IMG/VR virus record: IMGVR_UViG_3300012030_000004
Location: 1 to 63,839 of that record
Source: a virus
DNA: 63,839 nt
Strand: one strand, 5' to 3'
Shown: positions 3,884-62,723 of the stretch, piece by piece
How positions within the stretch are numbered: position 1 is the stretch's first letter
How the letters are laid out: each line of letters starts with the position of its first letter
Program-made: the position numbers and the translations under genes
Notes under the pieces: model-generated
Told to the model about the DNA's origin: nothing
Database searches by the model: none
Seen by the model: only the letters and a program-made list of their open reading frames with translations

Positions 3884-4977
3884 ATGAATCTCTTTTCTTG
3901 AAGTATCGGCCCAAGGAGTTCACTGACTTAGTTGGGCAGGATCTCTCCTCTCTGGCCCTTCAGAGAATGATTGAGCTCAACAGAGTTCCCCAAGGATTAC
4001 TTTTTTCGGGGCCCTCAGGGACCGGGAAGACCTCAGCGGCTAGAATTCTTTCTCAGTCGTTTGGGGGGCAGGTAACAGAGATTGATGCCGCCTCTAATCG
4101 GGGCGTTGATCACGTTCGCTCGTTGATCGATTCCCTGCGATACATGTCCGGGTCTCAGGTTACCATCCTAGATGAAGCCCACAATCTTACCCGCGAGGCT
4201 TTCAATGCCTTCTTGAAGACCCTAGAGGAGCCCACCCCCGGGACCATTTTTCTCCTCCTTACTACTGAACCCCACAAAATTCCTGATAGTGTTAAGTCCA
4301 GGCTGATGGAATTTGAGTTTAGGCGAATCTCCTCATCAGAGACCCTGAATCTCTTGATGAAGGTCTCTTCTCTTGAGAATATTGAGGTTCCAGATTCTCT
4401 TCTTAAAGTGTTAGCTGGGGAGGCTCAGGGTAACCTTCGCTCAGCCTTGACTTCTCTGGAATTCATCCAGCTTTCGGGAATTACTTCGGTATCTGACTAT
4501 CTTGAGGTGAACGGAAAAACTGACTTTGCTCCTCAACTAGTCAAGTTGATGTGCTTTGGGGATTATGGCTCGATCCTTTTGGAGTTGGACAGTGTTCTCT
4601 CTACTGTGGCCTCTCCTTCAGTGATCTCCTCAGCCTTGCTTGAACTGTATCGAGATCTTCTGATTCTGAGGTCAGGCGGCTCACTCGACCGAGAAGGCTC
4701 TTCTTATGACATCCGCAAGGAGCTCTCGGTGGAGATTGACAGAGAGCGTCTTCTTTCTGTGGTGAAACTTATGTGGGATCTGAGAACTAAGTTGAGGGTG
4801 TCTGATGACCCTAGAGGGTCTTTGGAGATGGCAGTGATTCTCATGTCAGATGTACTTTCCCAAGGAAAACCTGAGCCTAAAGATACAACTGTGGTAGAAT
4901 CGAGTAAAGTCCCCCGACCCCAGAAAGTGTCAGACTCTTCCGAAAAGATGTCATTGCACGACATACAAATTTCTTGA
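3880..4977 (+). CDS. DnaX-like clamp-loader ATPase (gamma-type)
   Basis: 365 residues. Begins with MNESLFLKYRPKEFTDLVGQ, the classic DnaX N-terminus (YRPxxFxdlvGQ). Walker A GPSGTGKTS at about 44-52, IDAASNRGVD, Walker B-type TILDEAHN at about 94-101, and sensor/arginine-finger DSVKSRLMEFEF (SRL in place of SRC). The four-cysteine zinc module of bacterial DnaX is missing between Walker A and IDAAS. At this length it corresponds to gamma, not tau. It would load a sliding clamp together with the delta' (45005) and delta (45978) homologues encoded 40 kb away. Confidence 0.85.
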   Translation: MNESLFLKYRPKEFTDLVGQDLSSLALQRMIELNRVPQGLLFSGPSGTGKTSAARILSQSFGGQVTEIDAASNRGVDHVRSLIDSLRYMSGSQVTILDEAHNLTREAFNAFLKTLEEPTPGTIFLLLTTEPHKIPDSVKSRLMEFEFRRISSSETLNLLMKVSSLENIEVPDSLLKVLAGEAQGNLRSALTSLEFIQLSGITSVSDYLEVNGKTDFAPQLVKLMCFGDYGSILLELDSVLSTVASPSVISSALLELYRDLLILRSGGSLDREGSSYDIRKELSVEIDRERLLSVVKLMWDLRTKLRVSDDPRGSLEMAVILMSDVLSQGKPEPKDTTVVESSKVPRPQKVSDSSEKMSLHDIQIS

Positions 4978-4999
4978 GGCCTCTTACTAAGGAGAAGCT

Positions 5000-5935
5000 G
5001 TGTCTACTATTCTTGTCACCGGAGGTTCCGGGTTCATCGGGTCCCACACTGTTGAAAGACTTCTTCGGGACGGCCACGAAGTCATTTCTTTTTCTAGGTC
5101 AGTGAAGCCTGCTCCCAGGAAACAAGGACTTCGATCCTTCTTAGGGGATATTCGAGATGAGACATCAGTTTTTGAGGCTATGGCTCATTGTGACGGGTTC
5201 ATTCACCTGGCTGGCATTCTGGGCACCCAAGAGACCATTCAAAATCCGCGCCCTTCTGTAGACACTAATGTCCGAGGGGGCCTCAACGTCCTAGAAGCGG
5301 CGGCTAGATACAAGGTCCCCGGAGTAAACATTGCGGTTGGGAACCACTGGGAGCAAAACCCTTATTCAATATCTAAGTCTACCGTTGAGCGGTTCGCCAA
5401 GATGTATAATCAGTACCGAGGTACGAACGTAGCCGTTGTCCGAGCCTTGAACGCCTATGGCCCGGGGCAGTCTGTCGCCGCCCCTTATGGCACCTCTCAG
5501 GTACGCAAGATCATGCCAAGCTTCGTGATGCGGGCCCTCAGGGGAGACCCCATCGAGATCTATGGAAACGGGAGCCAGGTTATGGACATGATCTACGTCT
5601 CTGACGTGGCAGACATTTTGGTAGACGCTTTGTATTACACCAAGGCCGGAGGTGAGTCGGGGTCAGATTTCTATGAGCCCGCTACGGGTCTGGAAGCTGG
5701 TACCGGAGTTACCACCACAGTGTCTCAGATAGCCCGCTCTGTCTGTGAGGAAGTCGGGGTTGACTCTGGTAGAGCAATTCTACACGTTCCTATGAGAGAC
5801 GGCGAGAAGCCCAACTCTACCGTTCTTGGTGATCCGTCTACGTTATGGCCTGTGTATGGAGACTATCCTAAAGGTTTCATTTCATTAAAGGATGGTGTCA
5901 AGAGAACAGTGGAGTTTTACAAAAATGTCTACTAA
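5000..5935 (+). CDS. NAD-dependent sugar epimerase/dehydratase
   Basis: 311 residues from GTG 5000 (AAGGAGAAGCT upstream). Extended SDR fold: TGGSGFIGSHTVERLL is the NAD-binding glycine motif (GxxGxxG), FIHLAG follows, and the active site YxxxK is seen as YSISK at about 121-125. Resembles UDP-glucose 4-epimerase/UDP-glucuronate dehydratase relatives. Substrate unknown. The two glycosyltransferase genes that follow in the same operon suggest it makes a nucleotide sugar for decorating virion or host surface (inference). Confidence 0.85.
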   Translation: MSTILVTGGSGFIGSHTVERLLRDGHEVISFSRSVKPAPRKQGLRSFLGDIRDETSVFEAMAHCDGFIHLAGILGTQETIQNPRPSVDTNVRGGLNVLEAAARYKVPGVNIAVGNHWEQNPYSISKSTVERFAKMYNQYRGTNVAVVRALNAYGPGQSVAAPYGTSQVRKIMPSFVMRALRGDPIEIYGNGSQVMDMIYVSDVADILVDALYYTKAGGESGSDFYEPATGLEAGTGVTTTVSQIARSVCEEVGVDSGRAILHVPMRDGEKPNSTVLGDPSTLWPVYGDYPKGFISLKDGVKRTVEFYKNVY

Positions 5936-59158: not shown

Positions 59159-59298
59159 AAACATTGAAAATCCTCTCATTTACTCTATTAGCTTTAGCCT
59201 CTTTTGGGGCTTTATCTGTCTTTCTCTTTTTACACTTGTTGGACCAGCAAATTAGAATGGAAGAAAGGCAAAAGCATGAATATAGATACCAGCAATAG
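59155..59298 (+). CDS. 47-residue membrane or secreted peptide
   Basis: ATG 59155 overlaps the previous stop. MKTLKILSFTLLALASFGAL is a positively charged start plus hydrophobic core, i.e. a signal anchor; the tail is charged (RMEERQKHEYRYQQ). AT-rich compared with the rest. Overlaps the kinase gene. Confidence 0.5.
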   Translation: MKTLKILSFTLLALASFGALSVFLFLHLLDQQIRMEERQKHEYRYQQ

Positions 59299-59875
59299 TC
59301 TAATTGGTCTCGGGGGTAGACTTCGATCAGGCAAAGACACTGTGGCTGACTACTTGGTGGAGAGCTATGGGTACCGGAAGATTGGTTTTTCGGATGCTCT
59401 CCATGAGATGCTTTTGGTGCTCAACCCCACGGTCAACCTCTCTTTCACCAAATCTTCTTACGCTGATCTCACAACCAAGCTGGGGTACACGGGCGCTAAG
59501 AAGATCCCCGAGGTCCGGAGACTACTTCAAGTGCTGGGCACCGAGGTGGGAAGGAACATGATTGATGAAGATCTGTGGGTCAATCAGGCCGAGAAGAAGA
59601 TTCGAGCTTCTTGGGATGAAGGGTTTCCGGTAGTCATTACTGGAGTTAGATTCCCTAATGAACTCAAGATGATCAGACTTCTGGAAGGCCGATCTGTCTG
59701 GGTCTCTCGTCCTTCTGTGGATGCTCAGACTTCTGCACATTCGTCAGAAAATACATTGCAGCCTGTTTACTTCAATTCCGTAATTCAGAATTCTGGGTCT
59801 CTAGATGATCTTTACGAAAACGTTGACGCCCTTCTTTACCAAAATAACCCCGAACTAAGAAAGTTAGACAATTGA
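59276..59875 (+). CDS. Deoxynucleoside monophosphate kinase
   Basis: 199 residues from ATG 59276, AAAGG upstream. P-loop LIGLGGRLRSGKDTVADYL at about 9-27 with the G-x-x-x-S-G-K-D-T pattern of T4 gp1-type dNMP kinases; YRKIGFSDALHEML follows (typical F-A/S-D-x-L), then RRLLQVLGTEVGRNMIDEDL and WDEGFPVVITGVRFPNE. Converts dNMPs to dNDPs for replication. It overlaps the thymidylate synthase gene. Confidence 0.82.
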   Translation: MNIDTSNSLIGLGGRLRSGKDTVADYLVESYGYRKIGFSDALHEMLLVLNPTVNLSFTKSSYADLTTKLGYTGAKKIPEVRRLLQVLGTEVGRNMIDEDLWVNQAEKKIRASWDEGFPVVITGVRFPNELKMIRLLEGRSVWVSRPSVDAQTSAHSSENTLQPVYFNSVIQNSGSLDDLYENVDALLYQNNPELRKLDN

Positions 59876-60576
59876 CAGAAATTCAGTTCTCAGATATTGC
59901 CGTAAATCTCATTGGCTCTATGGGATCTGACGCTTCTATTGTGCAGGCGGCTCGTGTTTCTCTTTCCGGAGAAAACGAGGTTGAAATGACCTCAAAGGAA
60001 GAGGGTCTTATCAATTATTTGATGAGAAATAAGCACGGGTCTCCCTTTGAACACACTACTCTCAAGTTCTATGTCAAAGCCCCCATCTTTGTGTTCCGTG
60101 AATTCCATAGACACAGGATCGGATTCAGTTACAATGAGATGAGTGGCCGATACACCAAGCTGAAACCAGAGTTCTATCTTCCTTCTTGGGATAGGCCTTT
60201 GATCAATGTGGGGACTAGTGCCTCCCCTGATTTTGCTCCTGGGGATGAGTACCTCGTCACCAAACTTCGAGAGACTCTCGCTTCTCAGTATCGAAGTGCT
60301 TGGAATGATTATGAAGAGCTTATTGCTATGGGGGTTGCCAACGAGGTAGCCAGGGTGCTCCTTCCTGTGGGAATCATGAGCCAGATGTATGTCACGTGTA
60401 ATGTTCGGTCCATGATGAGCTTCCTGTCTCTGCGCACCCAGGATGACCGCGCGGCTCATGTCTCGAAGCCTCAGCTGGAGATCCAGATGGTGGCTCGTCA
60501 GATGGAGGAGGCTTTTGCTGGGCTCTTCCCTGTCACCTACGCCAGCTACAACACCAACCAGCGTGTGGCTCCGTAG
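59872..60576 (+). CDS. thyX: Flavin-dependent thymidylate synthase
   Basis: 234 residues, TTG 59872 overlapping the kinase stop. Carries the ThyX motif RHRIGFSYNEMSGRY at about 80-94, preceded by SPFEHTTLKFYVKAPIFVFR, and a C-terminal RSMMSFLSLRTQDDRAAHVS with the FAD/dUMP-binding residues. Makes dTMP from dUMP using FAD and methylenetetrahydrofolate. With the kinase before it, this ensures thymidine nucleotides for phage DNA. Confidence 0.92.
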   Translation: MTEIQFSDIAVNLIGSMGSDASIVQAARVSLSGENEVEMTSKEEGLINYLMRNKHGSPFEHTTLKFYVKAPIFVFREFHRHRIGFSYNEMSGRYTKLKPEFYLPSWDRPLINVGTSASPDFAPGDEYLVTKLRETLASQYRSAWNDYEELIAMGVANEVARVLLPVGIMSQMYVTCNVRSMMSFLSLRTQDDRAAHVSKPQLEIQMVARQMEEAFAGLFPVTYASYNTNQRVAP

Positions 60577-60673: not shown

Positions 60674-60757
60674 TACACGAGCCGAAGAGGCAGTCGGTTA
60701 TCATTCAAACTGAAATTATGCCCTCGGGCTATCCGACCCTCACCCCATGTTCGTGTG
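60674..60757 (+). ncRNA. Y RNA 1 (short form, no tRNA-like module)
   Basis: Lower stem 60675-60682 pairs with 60749-60756 (8 bp, one G-U). Then comes the conserved unpaired CGAA facing an ACCCCAU strand, a 4-bp helix (60687-60690 with 60738-60741), a CA bulge, a 5-bp helix (60693-60697 with 60733-60737) and the loop start UUAUC. This is the Ro-binding core of Y RNAs (human: CCGAAGG ... GAGUUAUC). The remaining loop holds only a small GCC/GGC hairpin. Stems match Y2 and Y3 in position but not in sequence. Confidence 0.85.
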
Positions 60758-60764
60758 TTTCTTA

Positions 60765-60875
60765 GAATGAGCCGAAGAGGCATCGGTTATCCCACTGAAA
60801 ATGAGAACCTGGCGGTTCGATTCCGTCATTAGTTGGAACAGGTTATTTTTCCGATCTTCACCCCCATGCTCATTC
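60765..60875 (+). ncRNA. Y RNA 2 (with a T-arm-like branch)
   Basis: Perfect 8-bp lower stem (60765-60772 with 60868-60875), unpaired CGAA facing ACCCCCAU, helix 60777-60780 with 60856-60859, one bulged C, helix 60782-60786 with 60851-60855, then GGUUAUC. The distal part forms an extended stem (60798-60802 with 60845-60849; 60806-60810 with 60840-60844) carrying a tRNA T-arm-like hairpin (60811-60827, 5-bp stem, 7-nt loop UUCGAUU). No D arm or acceptor is seen, so only part of a tRNA-like module is present. Confidence 0.85.
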
Positions 60876-60879
60876 ACTC

Positions 60880-60922
60880 GCCTCTCTTGGAGGTTCATCG
60901 GGTTCGACTCCCGATGGAGGCA
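60880..60922 (+). ncRNA. tRNA acceptor/T-arm minihelix between Y2 and Y3
   Basis: 6-bp acceptor-like helix (60880-60885 with 60916-60921, last pair U-G) stacked on a 6-bp T stem (60897-60902 with 60910-60915) with the 7-nt loop UUCGACU: 12 bp in total, the length of a tRNA acceptor/T stack. No D or anticodon arm; 11 nt link the strands. No CCA encoded. It could be a tRNA relic or a mark recognised by RNase P and RNase Z to separate Y2 from Y3 (inference). Confidence 0.5.
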
Positions 60923-60924
60923 CA

Positions 60925-61058
60925 AAAACTGAACCGAAGAAGTATTGGTTATCCATGCTAAGGAAGAGGTCACGGGTTCGAATCCCGTCATCAGACCTAG
61001 TCTGATGTAGCTCAGAGGCAGAGCGCTTAAACCCAATCTTCACCCCATGTTCAGTTTT
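60925..61058 (+). ncRNA. Y RNA 3 with circularly permuted tRNA-like module (YrlA-type)
   Basis: Perfect 10-bp lower stem (60925-60934 with 61049-61058), unpaired CGAA facing ACCCCAU, helix 60939-60942 with 61038-61041, bulged U, helix 60944-60948 with 61033-61037, then GGUUAUC: the Ro-binding core. The loop holds tRNA parts in permuted order: variable-like GAGGUC, T arm 60972-60988 (loop UUCGAAU), acceptor 3' strand 60989-60995, CCUAG, acceptor 5' strand 61001-61007 (7 perfect pairs), UA, and D arm 61010-61024 (GCUC/GAGC, loop AGAGGCA). A short CUUA/UAAG helix joins it to the Y stem where an anticodon arm would be. This is the layout of bacterial YrlA RNAs. Confidence 0.92.
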
Positions 61059-61060
61059 AC

Positions 61061-61085
61061 CACATGTTCAGAAATACTGAACCGA
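61061..61085 (+). other. Y-like hairpin/remnant just before the Ro gene
   Basis: CACATGTTCAG and ACTGAACCGA copy the 3' and 5' ends of Y3's lower stem in reversed order and form a 6-bp hairpin (61066-61071 with 61077-61082, loop AAAUA). It may be the scar of a lost fourth Y RNA, or a leader element that competes with Y3 pairing or is bound by Ro for self-control. Confidence 0.45.
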
Positions 61086-61103
61086 GAGAAAGGATGAACA
61101 CCT

Positions 61104-62723
61104 ATGGCTAACAATAGCCTCAAGTCCGTCACAACCCGACCCGGAATGACGGCCACTCCTCAGACGCAGAAGGCGGCTAAGGGGCAGAAGGAGAACAACG
61201 CAGGCGGCTACACGTTCACTGTCTCAGACATGGACCGAGCCAAGCGTTTCTTGATCCTTGGATCTGACTCGTCGTTCTACCAGAGCGGCCAGAAGCTCTC
61301 CAAGGACAACGCCAAGAACCTGATCAAGCTTGCGAAGTCTGACCGTGCCCAGGAGCTCACTGACCTGATTGTGGAGATCTCCACTCAGGGTCGTGCGGCC
61401 AAGCAGGACCCCGGTCTGTTTGCACTGGCCGTCGTGGCTTCCCATGGCGCGACTGAGGACAAGCAGTACGCTCTGTCCAAGCTCTCTCAGGTAGCCCGTA
61501 CCGGATCCTCGCTGTTCACGTTCATCACTTACGTGGAGCAGTTCCGAGGGTGGGGGCGTGCCCTGACCAAGGCGGTTTCTTCTTGGTACACGGAGAAGTC
61601 TGTGGACAAGCTCGCCTACCAGACGGTGAAGTACCGTCAGCGTGATGGCTGGACTCACCGGGACGTGTTCCGCAAGGCGCACCCTCAGAAGGGCAAGAAC
61701 GGAATCTCCGAAGGAGAGGATGCTCGTGCTTTTGAGGCGCTGGGTGAGTGGATTCTCCGAGGTGAGTTGTTGGAGAACACTCCTAAGCTTGTTCGCGGCT
61801 TCACGATGGCCCAGACTGCTTCTAAGTCTGAGCTTCCTGCTCTGATCAGGGAGTACGGACTGTCGTGGGAGATGCTTCCTACCGAGGCTCTGAACGACAA
61901 GAAGGTCTGGGAGACGTTGCTTCAGGGCAATGTTCCTCTCGGGGCCCTGTTGCGTCAGCTTCCTCGTTTGACGAAGCTCGGCATCGTCGCGCCTATGGGT
62001 GGAAAGACTGCTGAGATCGCCAAGAGGATCACTGATCCTGAGGAGCTCAAGCGTGCCCGTATCCACCCCTTGAACCTTCTGGTTGCCCAGAAGACCTACG
62101 GGGCGGGGCACAGCCTCCGGGGCAATTCCTCCTGGGCCCCCAACCAGAAGATCGTGGACGCTCTTGACAAGGCCTTCTACCTGTCCTTCAAGACGGTCGA
62201 GCCCGCTGGCAAGCGCACTCTGATTGGGTTGGATGTCTCCGGCTCGATGGGCTGGGCTTCAGTGGCCGGGGTTCCTCTCATGCCTTCCGAGGCAGGAGCG
62301 GCCCTTGCGTTGGTCATTGCCAACACGGAGCCTGAGGCGCACATCTTCGGATTTGCGGACACCTTCCGTGAGTTGGGCCTCTCCCCAGGGATGCGACTTG
62401 ACCAGGCCCTGCGGCAGACAAGTTTAAGGACGTTCGGAGGCACGGACTGTGCTCAGGCCATCGAGTACGCTCGTACTCACAAGTTGGAAGTGGACACGTT
62501 CCTTGTGATCACAGACAACGAAACCTACGGGGGTCGGAGTCACCCACACGAGGCCTTGCAGAGGTACCGTCGAGAGACTGGCATCGATGCGAAGCTCATC
62601 GTGCTGGCGACTACTGCTTCCGAGTTCAGCCTCGCGGATCCCAGTGATGGTGGGATGCTGGACATCGCTGGGTTCGACTCAGCAGTTCCTCAGCTGATCA
62701 ACGAGTTCTCTCGGGGACTCTGA
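61104..62723 (+). CDS. rsr: Ro60-like TROVE-domain RNA-binding protein (Rsr)
   Basis: 539 residues, the size of animal Ro60 and bacterial Rsr. ATG 61104 with GAAAGGA upstream. Residues about 35-365 are the TROVE HEAT-repeat ring: DMDRAKRFLILGSDSSFYQS, ALAVVASHGATEDKQYALSK, FTFITYVEQFRGWGRALTKA, WYTEKSVDKLAYQTVKYRQR and GWTHRDVFRKAHP, all hallmark Ro segments. Residues about 370-539 are a VWA domain with an intact MIDAS: DVSGSMG (Asp377), GGTDC (Thr447) and ITDNE (Asp471). Ro binds misfolded RNA 3' ends in its ring and Y RNA on its outer surface; in bacteria Y RNA tethers Ro to polynucleotide phosphorylase. Directly downstream of three Y RNAs. Confidence 0.95.
   Translation: MANNSLKSVTTRPGMTATPQTQKAAKGQKENNAGGYTFTVSDMDRAKRFLILGSDSSFYQSGQKLSKDNAKNLIKLAKSDRAQELTDLIVEISTQGRAAKQDPGLFALAVVASHGATEDKQYALSKLSQVARTGSSLFTFITYVEQFRGWGRALTKAVSSWYTEKSVDKLAYQTVKYRQRDGWTHRDVFRKAHPQKGKNGISEGEDARAFEALGEWILRGELLENTPKLVRGFTMAQTASKSELPALIREYGLSWEMLPTEALNDKKVWETLLQGNVPLGALLRQLPRLTKLGIVAPMGGKTAEIAKRITDPEELKRARIHPLNLLVAQKTYGAGHSLRGNSSWAPNQKIVDALDKAFYLSFKTVEPAGKRTLIGLDVSGSMGWASVAGVPLMPSEAGAALALVIANTEPEAHIFGFADTFRELGLSPGMRLDQALRQTSLRTFGGTDCAQAIEYARTHKLEVDTFLVITDNETYGGRSHPHEALQRYRRETGIDAKLIVLATTASEFSLADPSDGGMLDIAGFDSAVPQLINEFSRGL

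What the first reader, a model, noticed from the sequence alone, without database searches (positions are those of the whole stretch)
60674..61058. Covarying stems prove selection on the Y RNA fold
The lower stems are ACACGAGC/GUUCGUGU, GAAUGAGC/GCUCAUUC and AACUGAAC/GUUCAGUU. The upper stems are GUCGG/CCGAC, AUCGG/CCGAU and AUUGG/CCAAU. The middle helices are GAGG/CCUC, GAGG/CUUC and GAAG/CUUC. Sequence changes on both sides keep pairing while the loop nucleotides CGAA and ACCCCAU stay fixed. That is strong internal evidence for three functional Ro-binding sites, not a simple repeat.
Basis: seen in the sequence. Interest (0 to 1): 0.85.

Follow-up and report, generated by a model that had tools for sequence, protein, structure and literature searches.

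The report
Phage Y RNA array beside Ro60
A phage carries three small Y RNAs in front of its Ro60 RNA-binding protein gene; more than a hundred relatives show that their shape is under selection, and a rearranged copy of the same Ro60 docking site sits over the start signal of the Ro60 gene itself, which suggests the protein controls its own production.

Summary
Window 60675-61056 holds three tandem folds with the stated lower, middle and upper helices, directly upstream of a Ro60 (TROVE + vWA) gene. Only small corrections are needed: Y2 has ACCCCCAU rather than ACCCCAU, and the loops are not strictly fixed. A covariance model finds 108 such modules beside Ro60 genes of phages and bacteria, all on the Ro60 strand and 90 within 700 nt upstream. 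In a tree-based null test on 101 of them, 14 base pairs covary significantly and all 14 belong to the proposed structure; 26 further modules agree. These are bacterial-type Y RNAs. Phage Y RNAs are already known, so this part is a new member. Y3 carries the YrlA tRNA-like domain but stays below Rfam's YrlA cut-off.

Two further points look new. (1) The Ro60 leader (61059-61086) holds a circularly permuted Ro-site: stem plus CGAG next to the Shine-Dalgarno. A descriptor fixed beforehand hit 14/65 hold-out leaders against 8/422 other gene starts (P = 2e-8). This suggests autogenous translational control. (2) The tRNA mimic includes an anticodon-arm-like hairpin with varying anticodon triplets. 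Ro60 binding, expression and regulation were not tested.

The parts
60675..60756 (+). Y1 RNA: lower/middle/upper helices, short insert with a GCC-stem hairpin, no tRNA-like domain
   Evidence: sequence; CM match 58.8 bits, E 8e-9 (it is in the training set); MFE fold
60765..60875 (+). Y2 RNA: same three helices; insert holds a T-arm-like GCGG-UUCGAUU-CCGU (read from sequence)
   Evidence: (53.2 bits; in the training set)
60880..60923 (+). T-arm plus GCCUC/GAGGC closing stem between Y2 and Y3: minimal tRNA-like element, role unknown (possibly a processing signal or tRNA relic)
   Evidence: fold; the only Rfam match is a weak one on the other strand to Plastid-ycf2
60927..61056 (+). Y3 RNA: three helices plus a permuted tRNA-like insert (YrlA type)
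   Evidence: YrlA RF02553 34.9 bits, E 6.7e-6 in a 581-nt search, below gathering 69; fold
60952..60964 (+). anticodon-arm-like hairpin UCC-AUGCUAA-GGA of Y3 (U33, A37, A38; anticodon position GCU)
   Evidence: family-wide 7-nt loop statistics
60972..61024 (+). T-arm (60972-60988), acceptor stem closed by CUA (60989-61007), D-arm (61010-61024) of Y3
61059..61086 (+). permuted Ro-site in the Ro60 mRNA leader: ACCACAU-GUUCAG-AAAUA-CUGAAC-CGAG, next to the Shine-Dalgarno AAAGGA (61089-61094)
61104..62723 (+). Ro60/Rsr protein, TROVE + Ro60 vWA domain, 539 aa
   Evidence: Pfam E 4e-46 and 5e-55; D. radiodurans Rsr 2nvo E 4e-115, Xenopus Ro60 1yvp E 2e-110

Best explanation
Three tandem phage Y RNAs are encoded on the same strand as, and just upstream of, the phage Ro60 gene. 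Each presents the same Ro-binding core: an 8-bp lower helix, the CGAA / ACCCCAU internal loop, a 4-bp middle helix and a 5-bp upper helix ending in GGUUAUC. The inserts differ, so one Ro60 can be loaded with different effector modules. Y3 carries a full permuted tRNA mimic; by analogy with YrlA/RYPER it most likely tethers or gates a host nuclease such as PNPase on Ro60 (inferred). A fourth, circularly permuted core lies on the Ro60 leader beside the Shine-Dalgarno. Most likely free Ro60 binds it and represses its own translation until Y RNA is present (inferred). Shown here: fold, covariation, location, tRNA-like anatomy, leader element and its enrichment. Not shown: transcription, Ro60 binding, regulation, effector.
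For: Covariation: 14/14 significant pairs in the structure against a tree-simulated null; 26 further modules 93.5% paired, slid controls 31-48%. Pairing-blind extraction: lower stem 6.48/8 pairs against 5.20 +/- 0.20 with partners shuffled. All 108 CM matches on the Ro60 strand, 90 within 700 nt upstream. Y3 insert matches YrlA; the same permuted T-acceptor-D layout occurs upstream of Ro60 in 119/236 loci and in none of the Ro60 coding controls. Ro60 gene intact, aligned over full length with Rsr and vertebrate Ro60. Leader element: hold-out 14/65 against 8/422 other starts, P 2e-8; with Y-type inner stem 12/65 against 1/422.
Against: Rfam's YrlA cut-off is not reached by any of the three, nor in 20 related loci, so family assignment rests on anatomy. 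CM alignments are fitted to the structure, which favours it; the pairing-blind set is small (23). No sigma-70-like promoter passed the scan, so co-transcription is not shown. The leader element is found in a minority of Ro60 loci (about 16-22%), its SD region does not pair with the upstream flank more than by chance, and related loci are not independent.
Confidence: 0.82

Rival explanations
1. The tRNA-like Y RNAs mainly act as decoys or sponges for anticodon nucleases or other tRNA-directed host defences, with Ro60 protecting them; the varied anticodon arms would bait different nucleases.
For: Inserts carry an anticodon-arm-like hairpin with U33/R37 and 27 different triplets; phages often place Y modules among tRNA genes. 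A competitive-inhibitor role for YrlA was raised as a possibility in PMC7790460.
Against: Same paper: YrlA was not cleaved by the anticodon nuclease studied. Y1 has no tRNA-like domain and Y2 only a T-arm; bacterial chromosomes carry the same layout; no defence partner was identified here.
Confidence: 0.15
2. The leader hairpin is only a relic of Y RNA duplication or a general SD-flanking hairpin, without regulatory meaning.
For: In the window its stem repeats the Y3 stem sequence (GUUCAG/CUGAAC), as a partial duplication would; found in a minority of loci.
Against: Enriched 14-fold (odds ratio) over other gene starts of the same loci in a hold-out set and placed at -13 to -23 in all Y-type cases; base -2 is A or T in 35/36 although unconstrained; in most phages its stem differs from that of the neighbouring Y RNA.
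Confidence: 0.35
3. The region is a degenerate tRNA cluster and the stems are chance repeats.
For: T-arm and D-arm sequences are present.
Against: ARAGORN finds no tRNA; strong covariation of the non-tRNA helices; consistent position by Ro60 genes.
Confidence: 0.02

Closest known systems
Bacterial YrlA RNAs (Rfam RF02553; Salmonella, M. smegmatis; Chen et al. 2014, Wang et al. 2018)
   Same: Encoded beside Ro60/Rsr; terminal stem binds Rsr; permuted tRNA-like T, acceptor and D arms, as in Y3 (family description in PMC8394870).
   Different: 34.9 bits against gathering 69; three RNAs in a row, two without a complete tRNA domain; an anticodon-arm-like hairpin in the insert, not mentioned in the description read here. 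Whether it was noted elsewhere could not be checked.
Deinococcus radiodurans Y RNA / RYPER
   Same: Ro60 orthologue with full-length similarity (2nvo); lower-stem Ro-site; effector module on the insert.
   Different: Tethering to PNPase untested in the phage; D. radiodurans Y RNA was not compared by sequence here.
Phage-encoded Ro60 with Y RNAs (mycobacteriophages and others)
   Same: 353 phage records encode a Ro-like protein. Chen et al. 2014 reported likely Y RNAs near Ro60 in bacteria and phages (from memory; paper not held).
   Different: A triple array with three different inserts, plus a permuted core on the Ro60 leader; no report of the latter was found.
Autogenous control by target mimicry (ribosomal protein operons, e.g. 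rpsO)
   Same: An RNA-binding protein's own leader resembles its structural RNA target.
   Different: Here the mimic is circularly permuted, and regulation is only inferred.

Membership tests
Y RNA (bacterial type) | encoded near a Ro60 orthologue | tested here: met
   Ro60 ORF starts 47 nt after the Y3 stem; 90/108 modules within 700 nt upstream
Y RNA (bacterial type) | 5' and 3' ends pair into a conserved bulged or internal-loop stem | tested here: met
Y RNA (bacterial type) | binds Ro60 protein | not testable with these tools
   needs binding assay
Y RNA (bacterial type) | expressed as a stable small RNA | not testable with these tools
   no RNA-seq; promoter scan found none
YrlA (RF02553) | reaches Rfam gathering score 69 | tested here: not met
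   34.9 bits for Y3, nothing for Y1 and Y2
YrlA (RF02553) | tRNA-like T, acceptor and D arms in permuted order | tested here: met
   Y3 only
Ro60/Rsr protein | TROVE and vWA domains with complete MIDAS DxSxS | tested here: met
   D377, S379, S381, T447, D471 invariant in alignment A1
tRNA | recognised cloverleaf gene | tested here: not met
   ARAGORN 0 genes
Autogenous Ro60 leader element | Y-type stem with CGRR beside the SD, more often than at other genes | tested here: met
Autogenous Ro60 leader element | Ro60-dependent translational control | not testable with these tools
   needs reporter assay

The most novel reading that the evidence does not exclude
Ro60 controls its own synthesis: the leader of Ro60 mRNAs in phages (including jumbo phages) and some bacteria carries a circularly permuted Y-RNA core whose single-stranded CGAA abuts the Shine-Dalgarno, so that Ro60 not occupied by Y RNA shuts off its own translation and protein and Y RNA stay in balance.
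Probability: 0.5. Interest if true: 0.75.

Novelty: new variant of a known kind. Interest (0 to 1): 0.6.

Why it matters
The Y RNA array adds a well-supported, Rfam-invisible branch of Y RNAs and gives a model that finds more. The permuted Ro-site on Ro60 leaders, if functional, would be a feedback loop for Ro60, and would give a minimal Ro60 recognition element that is easy to test. Anticodon-arm mimicry in Y RNAs bears on the open question of what bacterial and phage Ro60 RNPs act on.

Tried and rejected
Degenerate tRNA cluster: no tRNA found. Rfam at gathering: nothing. A loose descriptor scan gave too many chance hits and was replaced by sequence anchors and a covariance model. The anchor pattern with 3 mismatches is near chance across the window (20 against 13.5 expected). 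SD sequestration by a middle-helix equivalent in the leader was tested and is not above chance (16/36 against 19.1 shuffled). A raw hairpin-CGA[AG] leader test with 5-bp stems was weak against other gene starts (12% against 5.7%), which led to the stricter descriptor fixed before the hold-out. A search for more Ro60 genomes by phylum gave few loci. Key papers (Chen 2014; Sim and Wolin 2018) are not held.

Full report
OBSERVATION. Small corrections: the 3' loop of Y2 has five C, and the loops vary in relatives. The window is a whole virus record of 63,839 bases, and a second public contig holds the Ro60 gene with 100% identity. Downstream lies a Ro60 gene (TROVE and Ro60 vWA domains) that aligns over its full length with Deinococcus Rsr and vertebrate Ro60.

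COVARIATION. From sequence-only anchors (CGA..GGUUAY and ACCC..A[UC]G), without looking at pairing, 23 candidates were taken upstream of Ro60 genes; their lower stems pair 6.48 of 8 on average, against 5.20 +/- 0.20 with partners shuffled. Thirteen of the well-paired ones were aligned and made into a covariance model. The lower stem of these was part of the choice; the middle and upper helices were not. The model finds 108 modules in 79 of about 179 Ro60 loci of phages and bacteria. All 108 lie on the strand of Ro60 and 90 lie within 700 nt upstream of it. On 101 non-redundant modules a G-test with average-product correction was compared with 300 alignments simulated column by column along the tree: 14 column pairs reach E < 0.05, all 14 are pairs of the structure, and the other three structure pairs are nearly invariant or vary on one side. 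In 26 modules from loci fetched later, 93.5% of cells pair, against 66.4% shuffled and 31-48% slid. The alignments are fitted to the structure, so these figures lean towards it; the pairing-blind set is the control for that.

IDENTITY. Position by Ro60, the terminal stem with its internal loop, GGUUAUC after the upper stem, and the variable inserts identify Y RNAs of the bacterial type. The insert of Y3 matches Rfam YrlA (34.9 bits, E 6.7e-6 in a 581-nt search) but stays below the curated cut-off of 69, as do 20 related loci. The T-arm, acceptor, D-arm order occurs upstream of Ro60 in 119 of 236 loci, 84 of them right behind a Y 5' half, and in none of the Ro60 coding controls. Y1 has no tRNA-like domain and Y2 only a T-arm-like hairpin.

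ANTICODON ARM. Between GGUUAYC and the T-arm, 66 of 91 inserts hold a hairpin with a 7-nt loop at the same place (11-15 for loops of 5, 6 or 8); U33 in 57, purine 37 in 57, A38 in 51. U33 with purine 37 occurs in 51 against 2.9 in shuffles, with 27 different triplets at the anticodon place. In the window this is UCC-AUGCUAA-GGA. The mimic is thus a complete, circularly permuted tRNA. The published description read here mentions D, T and acceptor arms only (PMC8394870); whether the anticodon arm was noted elsewhere could not be checked.

LEADER ELEMENT. The Ro60 leader reads ACCACAU-GUUCAG-AAAUA-CUGAAC-CGAG-AGAAAGGA: the 3' half and then the 5' half of the Y core, closed by a short loop at the outer end, with CGAG beside the Shine-Dalgarno. 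A descriptor was written down before new loci were fetched. It hits 28/171 leaders of the discovery set (2.8 in dinucleotide shuffles) and 14/65 of the hold-out set (0.9 in shuffles; 8/422 other gene starts in the same loci, P 2e-8). Y-type inner stems G[CU][CU]C..G[AG][AG]C, a criterion taken from the Y modules and applied afterwards, occur in 12/65 against 1/422 (P 1e-10). The base two before the stem is A or U in 35 of 36, though unconstrained, as in the Y core. Examples include contigs of 416 and 462 kb (L416, L410). P values ignore relatedness, and starts were called by a simple rule. No extra pairing with the Shine-Dalgarno was found.

MECHANISM. Shown: anatomy, covariation, location. 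Inferred: Ro60 binds the lower stems; Y3 tethers an effector as in RYPER (PNPase in Deinococcus, PMC4726728); Ro60 in excess of Y RNA binds its own leader and blocks ribosome entry.

VERDICT. The finding is right and was under-stated. The Y RNA array is a new member of a known kind; the leader element and the anticodon arm make it a new variant that deserves a bench test.

Noticed in passing
window 61059-61094: Permuted copy of the Y-RNA Ro-site on the Ro60 mRNA leader beside the Shine-Dalgarno, enriched in Ro60 leaders of phages and bacteria.
   Followed up: yes
window 60952-60964 (Y3): Anticodon-arm-like hairpin in the tRNA-like insert, with varying triplets across the family.
   Followed up: yes
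window 60880-60923: T-arm plus closing stem between Y2 and Y3, a minimal tRNA-like element of unknown role, perhaps an RNase P or RNase Z processing signal.
   Followed up: partly
L029 (Microbacterium phage SM23) 1352-1418 and L020 (Rhodococcus phage Trina) 1640-1848: Annotated tRNA-Asn in SM23 overlaps a Y RNA 5' half; the 209-bp pseudo tRNA of Trina just upstream of Ro60 may likewise be a mis-called Y RNA.
   Followed up: partly
L018 (Gordonia phage Sixama) 5036-5672, L026 (Mareelih) 4395-5020, L008 (Cece) 226-414: Further Y modules interleaved with phage tRNA genes, away from Ro60.
   Followed up: partly
L267, L271, L289, L290, L294 (Nocardia Ro60 leaders): The hairpin-CGAA sits at about -35 rather than at the SD and is followed by more sequence; possibly another permuted form.
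   Followed up: no
window 59204-60576: A dNMP kinase-like gene and thyX lie directly upstream of the Y RNA array.
   Followed up: no
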